Part shown: piece after piece, positions 50,101 through 53,522 of the stretch
Numbering within the stretch: position 1 is the first letter of the stretch
How the letters are laid out: each line of letters starts with the position of its first letter
Source of the DNA: Nitrospira defluvii
GTDB taxonomy: Bacteria > Nitrospirota > Nitrospiria > Nitrospirales > Nitrospiraceae
Reading direction: 5' to 3'
Assembly (NCBI GenBank): GCA_000196815.1
Contig: FP929003.1
Location: forward strand, 2,007,501 to 2,071,500
DNA length: 64,000 nucleotides
Notes under the pieces: model-generated
What the model was told of the DNA's origin: nothing
The model's database searches: none
Seen by the model: only the letters and a program-made list of their open reading frames with translations
Program-made: the position numbers and the translations under genes

Positions 50101-52876
50101 CCGGATGGATGTGTCCGGCAACCCCTCGTGGCCGGCTCTGCTGGATCGTGTTCGCGAGATGGTGCTCGGGGCGCAGAGCCATCAGGACCTGTCCTTTGAG
50201 CGTTTGGTCGACGAACTAGGTGTGGTGCGGGACCTCGGCCACACGCCGCTGTTTCAGGTGATGTTCGTGCTGGAGGATAGCCCCTCGGACGTCCGTCGGT
50301 TCGCGGACCTTGAGGCTTCCCGGTTGAACGTCGGCACGGGGACCTCCGTCTTCGATCTCACGCTGGAGATGGCACAGAAGACCGATGGAAGCCTGGATGC
50401 GGTCTTCGAATACAGTACGGATCTCTTTGCCGCAGACACGATCGCGCGGATGGCCGGGCATCTGCAAGCACTGTTGCAACAGATCGTCGCCTCGCCGGAG
50501 GCATCCGTGAGTGAGTTGTCGATCCTCTCGCCCGGCGAGCAGGCTTTGGAGCTTGCCGATAGTCGCAGTCCACGGGAGGCCTATCTGCAGGAAGCCTCGC
50601 TCCATCACCTGATAGAAGCGCAGGCGAGTAAGACACCGGATGCGGTTGCGCTCCAATGCGACCGAGGCCCCGTCACCTATGACTCGTTGAACCGCCTGGG
50701 CAACCAACTCGCCCGCTATCTGCGAGTGCAGGGGATCGTCCATGAGGTGCCTGTCGCACTTTGCGTAGACCGCTCGCTGGAGATGGCCGTCGGTATCCTG
50801 GGCTGTCTCAAAGCCGGCGCGACCTACGTACCGGTCGATCCTTCCTATCCTACTGAACGGCAGGCGGCCATTTTCAGGGATGCGCAGCCTCAGCTTGTGT
50901 TGACCCAGGGAAGATATCTTGAAAGCCTTCCCGAGCACACCGCGCCGGTTTTGGCGCTTGATGTCGAATGGCCGGCTGTCGCCGGTTTGCCTGACGATAA
51001 TCTTGTCACCGGCTCGAATCCCGACCGCCTTGCGTATCTGCTTTATACGTCCGGCACCACAGGGATTCCCAAGGGCATCGGAATCACACACCGGGCCTTG
51101 GTGAATCACGGCCTTGCAATGGTCCGGGCCTATGACCTGTCGCCGGCGGATCGCGTGTTGCAGTTTGCCTCGGTGAGTTTTGACGTCGCGGCAGAAGAAT
51201 GTTTCCCCACCTGGCTGGCCGGGGCGACAGTCGTTCTGCGTGCCAACGAGCCGGTTCCAGCCTACGGGGATTTCCAGGCCTTCGTGCATGCGCAGGGGGT
51301 GACGGTGGTGAACCTGCCGACTCCCTATTGGGCCGCTTGGGCTGAAGAGAGTGAGCGCATCGGTGCGGCCATTCCGTCGTCGCTCAGACTGGTCATCGTA
51401 GGAAGCGAAAAAGCGTTGCCGGACGACCTCCGGCGGTGGCGACGGACAGCCGGCGAGCGGGTTGATTGGTGCAACTCCTATGGGCCGACGGAAGCCACGA
51501 TCACCGCGAGTACCTACCGGCCTGGACCAGCGCAGGATGATACGACCTTGCGAACCATTCCAATCGGGCGGCCGATCGCCAACGTGGAGATGTATGTCCT
51601 GGATCGCCATCTCCACCCGGTGCCGGCCGGTGTTCCCGGCGACTTGTATATCGGCGGCCCAGGCCTCGCGCGAGGCTACCATCGGCGACCGGCGCTGACC
51701 GCCGCACAATTTATTCCCCATCCCTTTAGTCATGACAGGGGGGCGCGTCTGTATCGCACCGGCGATGTAGCCCGCCGTCGTTCGGACGGACATCTCGAAT
51801 TTCTCGGGCGTGCAGATGAGCAGGTCAAGATTCGCGGGTTCCGCGTGGAACCGCAGGAGATCGAATGCCACGTGCGCGCCCATCCCGCGGTCAAAGACGC
51901 ACGGGTATTTCTGGAATCCGAGGCTCCAGGCGATTGGAGCGCGGTTCTGGCGGGTCTCAGTGACGAGGAGCAAGACCGGCTAGTGCGGGACGTGGAAGCC
52001 CTGTCGGCTGCCGAAGCGCGCTGGTTGTACGACCTGGAGTCGGATGGAGAACAACGGAGGAAGACGGTGATTCAACGGAAGCCGGAGTTCGAGGTGTATC
52101 TCAAGATCAACAAGGAAGAGTTTTTGACGCCTCCACGCGCCAACCAACGGAATTGGTTGCTGCGCCGCGCCCTCGATGAGTTCTCGGATGATCTGTTGGC
52201 TCTCGATGAGGCGTCGAAACGCTTCGTCTCAGGATCGGATCGGGCCGACATCGAACGCGGCTGGGCCGAGAGCCGGGCGGAGTACAACCCGTCGGAACTC
52301 ATCATCGAAGGGCAGCAGGTGATGCAGGATTGGGAAGCGCCGCTGATGAAGGCCATGGCCGACATCGTAACCGACGGGCACGGCGATGTGCTTGAGGTGG
52401 GGTTCGGCATGGGGATCTCGGCGTCGTACATTCAGGCGGGCCGGCCCAGCTCGCATACCATCATCGAGTGTAACCGGGATGTCATGCGCGCCTTCGCGGA
52501 GTGGACGGACAAGTACCCGGATCGCGACATCAGGCTCGTGCAGGGACGGTGGCAGGATGTCGTGGAGGACATCGGCCTGTTCGACGGCGTGTTCTTCGAT
52601 ACCTACCCGGCCAGCGAGGCAGAATTCGAAGAGTCCGTCATCAATAGCATCAATTTCGCCGAAGGGTTCATTCCGGTGGCCGCCAAGCTTCTGCGTCCGG
52701 GCGGCGTCTTCACGTACTACACCAACGAGATCGATTCGTTCAGCCGGCGACATCAACGTTTCCTGCTCGATCATTTCGGGTCGTTCACCCTGAGCATCGT
52801 CCGGTCGCTTCTCCCTCCGGACGACTGCCACTACTGGTGGGCCGACTCCATGGCGGTCGTCAAGGCGGTGAAGTGA
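47153..52876 (+). CDS. Hybrid NRPS: FAAL-ACP-C-A(part)-methyltransferase
   Basis: The 1907-residue enzyme starts the assembly line. Residues about 1-590 are a fatty acyl-AMP ligase (LQYTSGSTALPKGVMVSHANL, GWLPLYHDMGLIGNVLQPL, YPCYGLAEATLLVSGG). An acyl carrier domain follows (about 600-670, DDFFALGGDSLRG), then a condensation domain (685-1115, HHIVADGWS) and an adenylation domain (from about 1150: LLYTSGTTGIPKG, NSYGPTEATI, YRTGDVARR, VKIRGFRVEPQEIE at about 1557). After motif A8 the A domain is interrupted by a linker and a methyltransferase (about 1690-1907: VLEVGFGMGIS, IIECN, FFDTYP, LLRPGGVFTYYTN, LLPPDDCHYW) resembling guanidinoacetate N-methyltransferase. The frame then stops; A9, A10 and the carrier are on the next gene. 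The ATG is weakly supported by GGTGGA. Confidence 0.92.
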   Translation: MLRNACQYQTLVELLRVRVSEAPTKHAYTYLRDGETDALTWNYGELDRRARAIAAWLQSCGAAGERALLLYPPGLDYLAAFFGCLYAGVVAVPAYPPQRQRGWPRVRAMLADSQAAYALTTSGIARAIDRLSAKEDGYGRLATLQWLNTDHVPSGIDEDWSEPDITPETLAFLQYTSGSTALPKGVMVSHANLVHNQRLIQAAFGHTSQDVIVGWLPLYHDMGLIGNVLQPLHLGASCILMSPVHFLQKPVRWLSAITRYRATTSGGPNFSYDLCVRQITAAQRELLDLSSWTLAFNGAEPVRAETIERFSDRFRDRGFRKEAFYPCYGLAEATLLVSGGTRGTGPLVQPFEYSRLSSEPTASASGAASHLLVSCGVDRSGRQIRIVHPDSGIACAEGQVGEIWVSGPCVAQGYWQREQESRETFQTSLGGTGEGPFLRTGDLGFLKDGELFVTGRLKDLIIIRGRNHYPHDIERTIEECHPGLRPGAGAAFAITEGDEEQLVVVQEVEPRSQALDLQAITTAIRQTVAQAHEVSVCAVVLIKAGTLPKTSSGKVQRSLCREKFLARELIAVEESVLRNSTAAVVLEEDPALAGDEGGLEQELVDIWSQVLSRPNIKSGDDFFALGGDSLRGLQVVARVREVRGLNVPLDALFDYPTLAAFSAHVATCVPAEPGSPIKSIRRVSRDETLPLSFAQERFWFLDQLSPGSSINNIPVALRLVGSLDVEALRRSLDEIVQRHEILRARFALRNGRPSHIMVPKLTLALEVEDLRRSVEAGGDELVLRLVREEACRPFDLAKGPLVRGRLFRLDTMNHVLSLTLHHIVADGWSMDVLRRELASLYESFKNHRPSPLPALPIQYVDLIAAQLEQAKGENDRRLLEYWVDQLEGAPPLLNLPWDYPRPAIQGHRGARHPWTVEPELAHRLYEAGARYRATPFMLLVSALGLLLSRYSRQTDFCIGTPVANRVGREAGQLVGCFVNTVALRMDVSGNPSWPALLDRVREMVLGAQSHQDLSFERLVDELGVVRDLGHTPLFQVMFVLEDSPSDVRRFADLEASRLNVGTGTSVFDLTLEMAQKTDGSLDAVFEYSTDLFAADTIARMAGHLQALLQQIVASPEASVSELSILSPGEQALELADSRSPREAYLQEASLHHLIEAQASKTPDAVALQCDRGPVTYDSLNRLGNQLARYLRVQGIVHEVPVALCVDRSLEMAVGILGCLKAGATYVPVDPSYPTERQAAIFRDAQPQLVLTQGRYLESLPEHTAPVLALDVEWPAVAGLPDDNLVTGSNPDRLAYLLYTSGTTGIPKGIGITHRALVNHGLAMVRAYDLSPADRVLQFASVSFDVAAEECFPTWLAGATVVLRANEPVPAYGDFQAFVHAQGVTVVNLPTPYWAAWAEESERIGAAIPSSLRLVIVGSEKALPDDLRRWRRTAGERVDWCNSYGPTEATITASTYRPGPAQDDTTLRTIPIGRPIANVEMYVLDRHLHPVPAGVPGDLYIGGPGLARGYHRRPALTAAQFIPHPFSHDRGARLYRTGDVARRRSDGHLEFLGRADEQVKIRGFRVEPQEIECHVRAHPAVKDARVFLESEAPGDWSAVLAGLSDEEQDRLVRDVEALSAAEARWLYDLESDGEQRRKTVIQRKPEFEVYLKINKEEFLTPPRANQRNWLLRRALDEFSDDLLALDEASKRFVSGSDRADIERGWAESRAEYNPSELIIEGQQVMQDWEAPLMKAMADIVTDGHGDVLEVGFGMGISASYIQAGRPSSHTIIECNRDVMRAFAEWTDKYPDRDIRLVQGRWQDVVEDIGLFDGVFFDTYPASEAEFEESVINSINFAEGFIPVAAKLLRPGGVFTYYTNEIDSFSRRHQRFLLDHFGSFTLSIVRSLLPPDDCHYWWADSMAVVKAVK

Positions 52877-52877
52877 C

Positions 52878-53522
52878 ATGGAGGACCGGTTCCAGCAGAT
52901 CGAGCGGTTGAGCGATGCCCAGCGCCGATTGCTAGGGCTGCGTGCGGGACGACAGGCACGGGCGACCGAAGCCCGGTTGGTGGGGTACATCGTTCCCCGC
53001 ACGACCGGCGGGGTTACGGGACAGGACCTTCGCGGCTTTCTCGCGCAACGGCTCCCGGACTACATGGTGCCGAGCGGCTGGGTTTTCCTGGAGGCCTTTC
53101 CCATGACGTCTCGGGGAAAGATCGACAGGAAGGCATTACGGGCGATGGGACGATCCAAACCCGAAGCCTTGTCGGCGCAGGGAACGCCCCGCGACGACCG
53201 CGAACGGGCGGTGGCGGCGATATGGGAAGAGGTTCTGGGGGTTCGCGGCGTCGGTGCCCACGATAATTTTTTCGACCTCGGAGGGCATTCCCTGCTGTTG
53301 CCCAAGGTGTTGACGAAGGTGCGGGCCATGACCGACCGGGAGGTGTCGATGGTGGATCTGTTTCGATATCCCACCGTCCATGCGCTGGCCGCCGCTCTCG
53401 CCGGATCTCACGATACACAAGCCGATGGAGTCGGTAGCCGTCAATTGAAAGAGACACGGGACGCGGGAGTCCGTCGGATGAAGCAGCGGCGAACCAAGCA
53501 GATCGCATCGAGGAACGAATGA
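52878..53522 (+). CDS. NRPS fragment: C-terminal adenylation subdomain and peptidyl carrier
   Basis: The 214-residue protein continues the A domain: LVGYIVPRTTGG, LAQRLPDYMVPSGWVFLEAFP and A10 TSRGKIDRKAL, including the lysine needed for adenylation, then a carrier domain with DNFFDLGGHSLLLPKVL (phosphopantetheine serine about residue 137). It starts one base after the stop of the preceding gene, in a different frame (TGAcATG), so either the two chains assemble in trans or the junction is a frameshift in the DNA or assembly. A basic C-terminal tail (RRMKQRRTKQIASR) may dock to the PKS. It overlaps the PKS gene by four bases. Confidence 0.88.
   Translation: MEDRFQQIERLSDAQRRLLGLRAGRQARATEARLVGYIVPRTTGGVTGQDLRGFLAQRLPDYMVPSGWVFLEAFPMTSRGKIDRKALRAMGRSKPEALSAQGTPRDDRERAVAAIWEEVLGVRGVGAHDNFFDLGGHSLLLPKVLTKVRAMTDREVSMVDLFRYPTVHALAAALAGSHDTQADGVGSRQLKETRDAGVRRMKQRRTKQIASRNE

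What the first reader, a model, noticed from the sequence alone, without database searches (positions are those of the whole stretch)
51800..53170. Adenylation domain interrupted by a guanidinoacetate-methyltransferase-like domain and split between two genes
Seen: A8 is followed not by A9/A10 but by a linker and a methyltransferase with VLEVGFGMGIS, IIECN, FFDTYP and LLPPDDCHYW. The reading frame then stops, and LPDYMVPS and TSRGKIDRKAL with the essential lysine are on the next ORF, one base later in another frame. Known: interrupted A domains between A8 and A9 exist, but usually carry other N- or O-methyltransferase types. A GAMT-like insert combined with an A domain completed in trans is unusual.
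Basis: partly seen in the sequence, partly recalled or inferred. Interest (0 to 1): 0.78.

Follow-up and report, generated by a model that had tools for sequence, protein, structure and literature searches.

The report
Split peptide-building enzyme with guanidino-type methyltransferase
In Nitrospira, one amino-acid-activating domain of a peptide-building enzyme is naturally cut in two genes, with a methyltransferase related to the creatine-making enzyme GAMT attached at the cut; both the cut and the methyltransferase are conserved in other bacteria, so this is a working arrangement rather than a sequencing error.

Summary
Observation confirmed, GAMT claim confirmed, split real. ORF1 (47153-52876) is FAAL-PCP-C-A(A1-A8)-linker-methyltransferase; ORF2 (52878-53522) holds A9/A10 with its lysine, then a PCP. 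Every Nitrospirota relative with the methyltransferase (12 compared) has the same boundary. Of 45 four-fold sites in the last 180 ORF1 codons, the only one invariant in 13 sequences lies in AAGGCGGTGA, a near-consensus ribosome site six bases before ORF2. A sequencing indel is excluded. By profile and fold the methyltransferase matches only GAMT among solved structures, with GAMT's two guanidino-binding acids kept; standard NRPS methyltransferases are not its relatives. The same family follows a split A domain in a Thermodesulfobacteriota and a betaproteobacterium; in three actinomycetes it is a separate gene between the two A-domain halves. A split A domain with a methyltransferase is not unprecedented: corallorazine Crz1/Crz2 was shown active in vitro (PMC11342130). 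The GAMT type, the three-gene form and the cross-phylum conservation appear unreported. Best explanation: both proteins rebuild one A domain that loads arginine (code DVENIGSITK; ApnA Arg codes DVE[D/S]IGA[IV]EK), and the methyltransferase N-methylates its guanidine in a siderophore-like lipopeptide pathway. Arginine and the methylated atom are inferred.

The parts
47153..52876 (+). ORF1, 1907 aa: FAAL-PCP-C-A(core, A1-A8)-linker-GAMT-like methyltransferase
47153..48862 (+). fatty acyl-AMP ligase domain (aa 1-570)
   Evidence: NF004509 (PRK05850.1) fatty-acid--AMP ligase E 6e-161 and several FAAL models, below their whole-protein cut-offs
48953..49147 (+). first carrier protein (aa 601-665)
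   Evidence: PF00550
49211..50545 (+). condensation domain (aa 687-1131)
   Evidence: PF00668
50615..51922 (+). A-domain core with motifs to A8; specificity residues DVENIGSIT (K from ORF2)
   Evidence: closest solved A domain is ApnA A1 (Arg/Tyr), 4d4g, E 6.4e-42 over A3-A5
51923..52066 (+). linker between A8 and the methyltransferase, partly conserved in Thermodesulfobacteriota and Pseudoduganella homologues
52067..52261 (+). N-terminal extension of the methyltransferase family (about 60 aa; not seen in the standalone GAMTs compared)
52262..52873 (+). GAMT-like methyltransferase core
52334..52336 (+). Glu1728, aligned to Glu45 of rat GAMT (guanidino-binding)
   Evidence: invariant
52598..52600 (+). 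Asp1816, aligned to Asp134 of rat GAMT (guanidino-binding)
   Evidence: invariant
52862..52871 (+). AAGGCGGTGA, near-consensus ribosome-binding site for ORF2 inside the last ORF1 codons
   Evidence: holds the only 1 of 45 four-fold sites invariant in 13 sequences; kept in the MT-deleted L026
52874..52880 (+). gene boundary TGA-C-ATG
52878..53522 (+). ORF2, 214 aa: short N-terminal helix, A-domain C-terminal subdomain (A9/A10), carrier protein
53118..53120 (+). A10 catalytic lysine (Lys81 of ORF2)
   Evidence: conserved in all 12 ORF2 sequences aligned
53208..53399 (+). second carrier protein, acceptor of the activated residue
   Evidence: PF00550
53519..58072 (+). ORF3, polyketide synthase KS-AT-KR-ACP (AT motif HAFH, malonyl type by rule of thumb); overlaps the ORF2 stop by four bases
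58105..59805 (+). ABC exporter of the same cluster (start approximate)
   Evidence: PF00005/PF00664
59812..61245 (+). class III aminotransferase
   Evidence: PF00202
61242..63629 (+). penicillin-amidase family acylase (PvdQ-like role possible)
   Evidence: PF01804

Best explanation
ORF1 and ORF2 are two subunits of one NRPS module. The large part of the A domain (ORF1) and the small C-terminal subdomain with the catalytic lysine (ORF2) come together as separate polypeptides to give an active A domain, which adenylates an amino acid, most likely arginine, and loads it on the ORF2 carrier protein. The C domain of ORF1 joins it to the fatty acid that the FAAL has placed on the ORF1 carrier. The GAMT-like methyltransferase at the end of ORF1 methylates the residue, most likely on a guanidino nitrogen as GAMT does. 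The KS-AT-KR-ACP protein then extends the residue by a malonate unit, much as in variochelin (arginine plus methylmalonate). ORF2 is translated from its own ribosome site inside the last codons of ORF1, which would couple the two subunits. Shown by sequence: the split, its conservation, the ribosome site, domain identities, the GAMT family and fold, the conserved GAMT acid pair. Inferred by homology: reassembly in trans (demonstrated only for Crz1/Crz2), arginine as substrate. Inferred more weakly: guanidino N as the methylated atom, methylation on the carrier protein.
For: Conserved boundary in 13 Nitrospirota sequences and an invariant ribosome-site sequence. Equivalent splits after the same methyltransferase in L052 and L053. 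A10 lysine, A9 and carrier protein complete in ORF2. Published precedent that such halves reconstitute: Crz1.2 alone inactive, Crz1.2 plus Crz2 nearly quantitative ATP exchange with Gly (PMC11342130). GAMT: only PDB family hit, E 9.2e-37 by profile, alignment over the whole GAMT including the C-terminal PPxDCxYxxxxxM, Glu45 and Asp134 equivalents invariant; fold Z 22.0 to GAMT. Arginine: specificity code DVENIGSITK shares 7 of 10 positions with ApnA A1 Arg-only codes DVEDIGAIEK and DVESIGAIEK (PMC5311044), the DVEN[IV]G[AS][IV]T pattern is kept in all Nitrospirota homologues, and ApnA A1 is by far the closest solved A domain (146.6 bits against 58.9 for the best single LgrA domain). Pathway logic: fatty acid, Arg, methylmalonate and TauD with OH-Asp in variochelin (PMC10999976) match FAAL, A, KS-AT-KR, TauD and Asp-type A domains here.
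Against: Nothing here shows activity. The code differs from ApnA Arg codes at 278, 322 and 331, and DVE-type codes also appear in A domains of unknown substrate. Partner A domains in other phyla have different codes (DAWDTGCID, DASDLGAIT, DVEQVGGVT, DSWDVGLIG), so the methyltransferase either follows a chemical group shared by different residues or acts on the backbone. The acid pair of GAMT could also serve an ordinary amine. The model of A-core plus methyltransferase is low confidence (pLDDT 64.9), so the geometry is unknown. One relative (L026) lives without the methyltransferase.
Confidence: 0.55

Rival explanations
1. Same split A domain, but the methyltransferase N-methylates the alpha-amine (backbone), as conventional M domains between a8 and a9 do.
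For: Position between a8 and a9 is the usual place of backbone N-methylating M domains (PMC11355689); partner A-domain codes differ between taxa, which fits a substrate-independent backbone target; Crz nMT makes N-Me-Gly (PMC11342130).
Against: Not related to conventional NRPS methyltransferases by profile, whereas the adjacent module in L055 does carry one (Methyltransf_12 E 2e-14); GAMT guanidino-binding acids are kept; code points to a guanidino residue in Nitrospira.
Confidence: 0.25
2. The split is a sequencing or assembly error and the A domain is really one protein.
For: Only one base and a stop separate the frames.
Against: Same boundary in 13 genomes, different frame relation in other phyla, and an invariant ribosome site.
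Confidence: 0.01
3. The module is decaying: the A domain is inactive and the carrier protein is loaded in trans.
For: In Streptomyces sp. JHD 1 (L056) both halves look degenerate: no A3 motif and no GKxDR.
Against: In Nitrospira all core motifs and the A10 lysine are intact and conserved across species.
Confidence: 0.07
4. The split is a regulatory or dynamic feature: a free C-terminal-subdomain-PCP subunit shuttles to the methyltransferase or to another A-core.
For: The split accompanies the methyltransferase in every a8-a9 case found, and remains when the methyltransferase is lost (L026); in actinomycetes both sides are split.
Against: No direct evidence; persistence can also reflect history. 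In L073 the methyltransferase follows an intact A-PCP, so the methyltransferase does not need a split.
Confidence: 0.1

Closest known systems
Corallorazine synthetase Crz1/Crz2 (Corallococcus coralloides B035; PMC11342130)
   Same: A domain cut by a stop right after a methyltransferase that follows A8; A9, A10 and the T domain at the start of the next ORF; the halves work together in vitro.
   Different: Described as a conventionally embedded nMT (N-Me-Gly), a single cluster family; here a GAMT-type methyltransferase, arginine-like code, ORF2 is only A-sub plus PCP and a PKS follows. Crz sequences were not on hand, so homology of the two splits was not tested.
Interrupted A domains A-M-A at a8/a9 (TioS, KtzH, McyA, ColG; reviewed in PMC8949500 and PMC11355689)
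   Same: Methyltransferase positioned between a8 and a9.
   Different: There the domain is one polypeptide with M types N-, O- or S-; here the polypeptide ends after M and M is of GAMT type.
Guanidinoacetate N-methyltransferase (GAMT; PDB 1xcj, 3orh, 1khh)
   Same: Sequence profile, fold, SAM motif, Glu45 and Asp134 equivalents.
   Different: Separate 100/100 clade with an N-terminal extension, NRPS-linked; substrate not guanidinoacetate as far as context tells.
Variochelin/vacidobactin-type lipopeptide siderophores (PMC10999976)
   Same: Fatty acid, arginine-type first residue, KS-AT-KR extension, TauD, Asp and Ser modules.
   Different: Split A domain, methyltransferase, malonyl-type AT, acylase, different downstream modules; in the variochelin paper no methyltransferase is mentioned.

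Membership tests
GAMT (guanidinoacetate N-methyltransferase) superfamily | significant sequence similarity to GAMT over the whole domain | tested here: met
   E 9.2e-37, profile 64-262 to chain 18-228; no other family below 0.01
GAMT (guanidinoacetate N-methyltransferase) superfamily | GAMT fold | tested here: met
   Z 22.0, rmsd 2.4, 197 aligned; next family Z 15.3
GAMT (guanidinoacetate N-methyltransferase) superfamily | guanidino-binding Glu45 and Asp134 | tested here: met
   both invariant in nine diverse members
GAMT proper (enzyme of creatine synthesis) | groups with free-standing GAMTs | tested here: not met
   NRPS-linked methyltransferases form their own 100/100 clade
GAMT proper (enzyme of creatine synthesis) | methylates guanidinoacetate | not testable with these tools
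   needs enzyme assay
Conventional NRPS N-methyltransferase (Methyltransf_12 type) | matches the methyltransferase profiles of such domains | tested here: not met
   best Pfam E 0.066 (PF13649, below cut-off); the conventional one in L055 gives 1e-14
Interrupted A domain (A-M-A, one polypeptide) | auxiliary domain between a8 and a9 | tested here: met
Interrupted A domain (A-M-A, one polypeptide) | A9/A10 continue in the same polypeptide | tested here: not met
   separate ORF in every Nitrospirota homologue
Split A domain (Crz1/Crz2 type) | A1-A8 plus methyltransferase on one ORF, A9/A10 plus carrier on the next | tested here: met
Split A domain (Crz1/Crz2 type) | halves reconstitute adenylation activity | not testable with these tools
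   shown for Crz only (PMC11342130)
Split A domain (Crz1/Crz2 type) | common descent with the Crz split | not tested
   Crz sequences were not retrieved
Variochelin-type siderophore pathway | FAAL or acyl start, Arg A domain, KS-AT-KR, TauD, Asp A domain | tested here: inconclusive
   all domains present, Arg specificity only predicted; no product known

The most novel reading that the evidence does not exclude
A family of GAMT-derived methyltransferases has been built into NRPS assembly lines at the a8/a9 joint, with the A domain genetically broken there each time: core-MT | Asub-PCP in three phyla and core | MT | Asub-PCP as three separate genes in Actinomycetota. It installs N-methyl groups on guanidino side chains, a methylation type not listed for interrupted A domains in the reviews read here. 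The free Asub-PCP subunit would be a natural detachable unit.
Probability: 0.4. Interest if true: 0.78.

Novelty: new variant of a known kind. Interest (0 to 1): 0.62.

Why it matters
The A-domain C-terminal subdomain rotates between two catalytic steps, and whether it can work as a separate protein has, by the authors' account, been tested once (Crz1/Crz2). This locus shows that the arrangement is old, conserved and present in several phyla, even in three pieces, which gives natural split points for engineering assembly lines. If the methyltransferase is a guanidino N-methyltransferase, it adds a side-chain modification not listed for interrupted A domains and predicts an N-methyl-guanidino lipopeptide, probably a siderophore, from nitrite-oxidising bacteria. 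L026, which lost exactly the methyltransferase, is a ready natural control.

Tried and rejected
Sequencing indel: rejected. Programmed frameshift: rejected, because the frame relation differs between lineages (+1, -1) and a ribosome site is conserved. Conventional nMT: rejected. First specificity code read by eye (DVENVVSITK) was off by one at 299/301; corrected with the ApnA alignment to DVENIGSITK. Idea that an acid at 239 or 278 marks all partner A domains as arginine-specific: dropped, since acids at those positions also occur in unrelated A domains in the same set. Order of events (free methyltransferase first or fusion first): the tree does not resolve it (deep forks open). A-core plus methyltransferase model: too low in confidence for geometry. 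Searches in Streptomycetales (392 genomes) and Burkholderiales (300 genomes) found one new member in total, L073, so the family is rare there. Plasmid search gave only weak standalone relatives. Papers: no hit for GAMT with NRPS beyond chance; the catalogue of interrupted A domains by Lundy et al. 2020 is not held, so the claim 'unreported' is limited to what could be read.
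Full report
Checking the observation. ORF1 (47153-52876, 1907 aa) reads FAAL, carrier protein, condensation domain, A-domain core, then a region with no Pfam family above its cut-off. ORF2 (52878-53522, 214 aa) reads AMP-binding_C followed by a carrier protein. ORF3 (PKS) overlaps the ORF2 stop by four bases. The window lies in a single-contig genome of 4,317,083 bases, a size that from memory equals Candidatus Nitrospira defluvii; the closest named records are Nitrospira MAGs.

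The split is real. A search of 295 genomes of the phylum found the methyltransferase plus linker in ten relatives at 79-98% identity, in the same genus, a second genus of the family and a second family of the order. In all ten, ORF1 ends at the same residue and ORF2 starts one base after the stop. Two more genomes of the genus show the same; in the genus, 11 of 24 near-complete genomes carry the ORF2 orthologue, and all 11 have the methyltransferase. The last four codons of ORF1 are AAG GCG GTG AAG in most species. They hold AAGGCGGTGA, one base from the ideal ribosome-binding sequence, six bases before the ORF2 ATG. Of 45 four-fold degenerate sites with an invariant amino acid in the last 180 codons, exactly one is invariant in all 13 sequences, and it lies in this element. 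So the C-terminal tail of ORF1 very probably doubles as the translation start signal of ORF2. One relative, L026 (G187, same family), has lost the methyltransferase but keeps the linker, the last residues ADSMA..KAVK and the same ribosome site, now before TAATG. The split therefore stays when the methyltransferase goes.

The methyltransferase. Against all PDB sequences it matches only guanidinoacetate N-methyltransferase significantly (E 7.9e-27; profile E 9.2e-37). Solved A domains that carry an M domain, such as TioS 5wmm, are in that library and are not matched by the methyltransferase. AlphaFold on the nine-member alignment (pLDDT 73.7) gives GAMT as first hit (Foldseek E 8.6e-17; Z 22.0 against 15.3 for spermidine synthases). 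The residues aligned to GAMT Glu45 and Asp134, which from established knowledge hold the guanidino group, are invariant. In a tree the NRPS-linked proteins form one 100/100 clade and free-standing bacterial GAMTs another, so it is a GAMT-related family with an N-terminal extension of about 60 residues, not GAMT itself. Conventional NRPS methyltransferase profiles do not match; the conventional one in the neighbouring module of L055 does, with E 1e-14.

The family elsewhere. A scan of 84,980 species and later searches gave these architectures. Thermodesulfobacteriota DHS20C13 (L052): C-A-core-MT, then Asub-PCP and a thioesterase-like C-terminal part (by eye) on the next ORF. Pseudoduganella violacea (L053): C-A-core-MT, then Asub-PCP overlapping by four bases, after a KS-AT-KR protein. 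Nocardiopsis (L055), Streptomyces JHD 1 (L056) and Streptacidiphilus (L057): A-core, then MT, then Asub-PCP as three separate, mostly overlapping genes. Micromonospora (L054): A domain with its own Asub, MT separate. Streptomycetales G598 (L073): MT after an intact A-PCP in one ORF. Allokutzneria (L058, L069): MT alone. No case was found of this methyltransferase inside an unbroken A domain. In L056 the A-core lacks the A3 motif and the Asub lacks GKxDR, so that A domain is probably dead.

Substrate. The A-core of the window is closest, among solved A domains, to ApnA A1, the Arg/Tyr domain of anabaenopeptin synthetase. Aligned to it, the specificity code is DVENIGSITK; Arg-only ApnA codes are DVEDIGAIEK, DVEDIGAVEK and DVESIGAIEK (PMC5311044). 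All Nitrospirota homologues, L026 included, read DVEN[IV]G[AS][IV]T. The next protein is KS-AT-KR-ACP with a malonyl-type HAFH motif. Further on come an ABC exporter, a class III aminotransferase, a penicillin-amidase acylase, a TauD oxygenase, and NRPS modules with Ser-like, Asp-like and DIWELTA-type codes, ending in a thioesterase. This resembles variochelin, a lipopeptide siderophore that starts with fatty acid, arginine and methylmalonate (PMC10999976). I therefore predict an N-methylated arginine-derived unit. The arginine step is moderately supported. The guanidino site rests on the GAMT residues and the code together. Codes of the partner A domains in other phyla differ, which leaves backbone N-methylation as a live rival.

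Known and new. The split A domain with a methyltransferase is known from corallorazine: Crz1 stops after the nMT, Crz2 begins with A9/A10, and only the mixture is active (PMC11342130). [quoted passage not shown] New here, as far as the held literature goes: a GAMT-type methyltransferase at this place, conservation of the split over 13 genomes of one phylum and two further phyla, the embedded ribosome site, the natural methyltransferase deletion, and the three-gene form in Actinomycetota. The 2020 catalogue of interrupted A domains could not be read, so novelty of the M type is not certain.

Noticed in passing
L026 (G187), junction near oriented 8051: Natural clean loss of the methyltransferase from the same cluster; linker, tail and ribosome site kept, PKS gene still downstream.
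   Followed up: partly
L055, L056, L057 around 8900-10500: Actinomycete A domains broken into three genes (A-core | MT | Asub-PCP); in L056 both A halves look degenerate while the MT is intact.
   Followed up: partly
window 58105-63629, L075, L076: Rest of a large siderophore-like lipopeptide cluster: exporter, class III aminotransferase, penicillin-amidase acylase, TauD, several NRPS modules, TE, AcrB-type pump on the other strand.
   Followed up: partly
L073, directly after the MT: Small ORF that by eye resembles a TauD/VioC-like (arginine hydroxylase type) oxygenase next to an A-PCP-MT protein; not checked with a profile.
   Followed up: no
L065 7361-7957: Free-standing GAMT-like gene directly before an NRPS in Lyngbya sp. 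CCAP 1446/10.
   Followed up: no
L027/L067 (G176 C71): Free-standing GAMT-like gene in a Nitrospira japonica MAG, apparently frameshifted.
   Followed up: no
window 46382-46747, minus strand: Short ORF that by eye looks like a PilZ-domain protein just upstream of the cluster; not checked.
   Followed up: no
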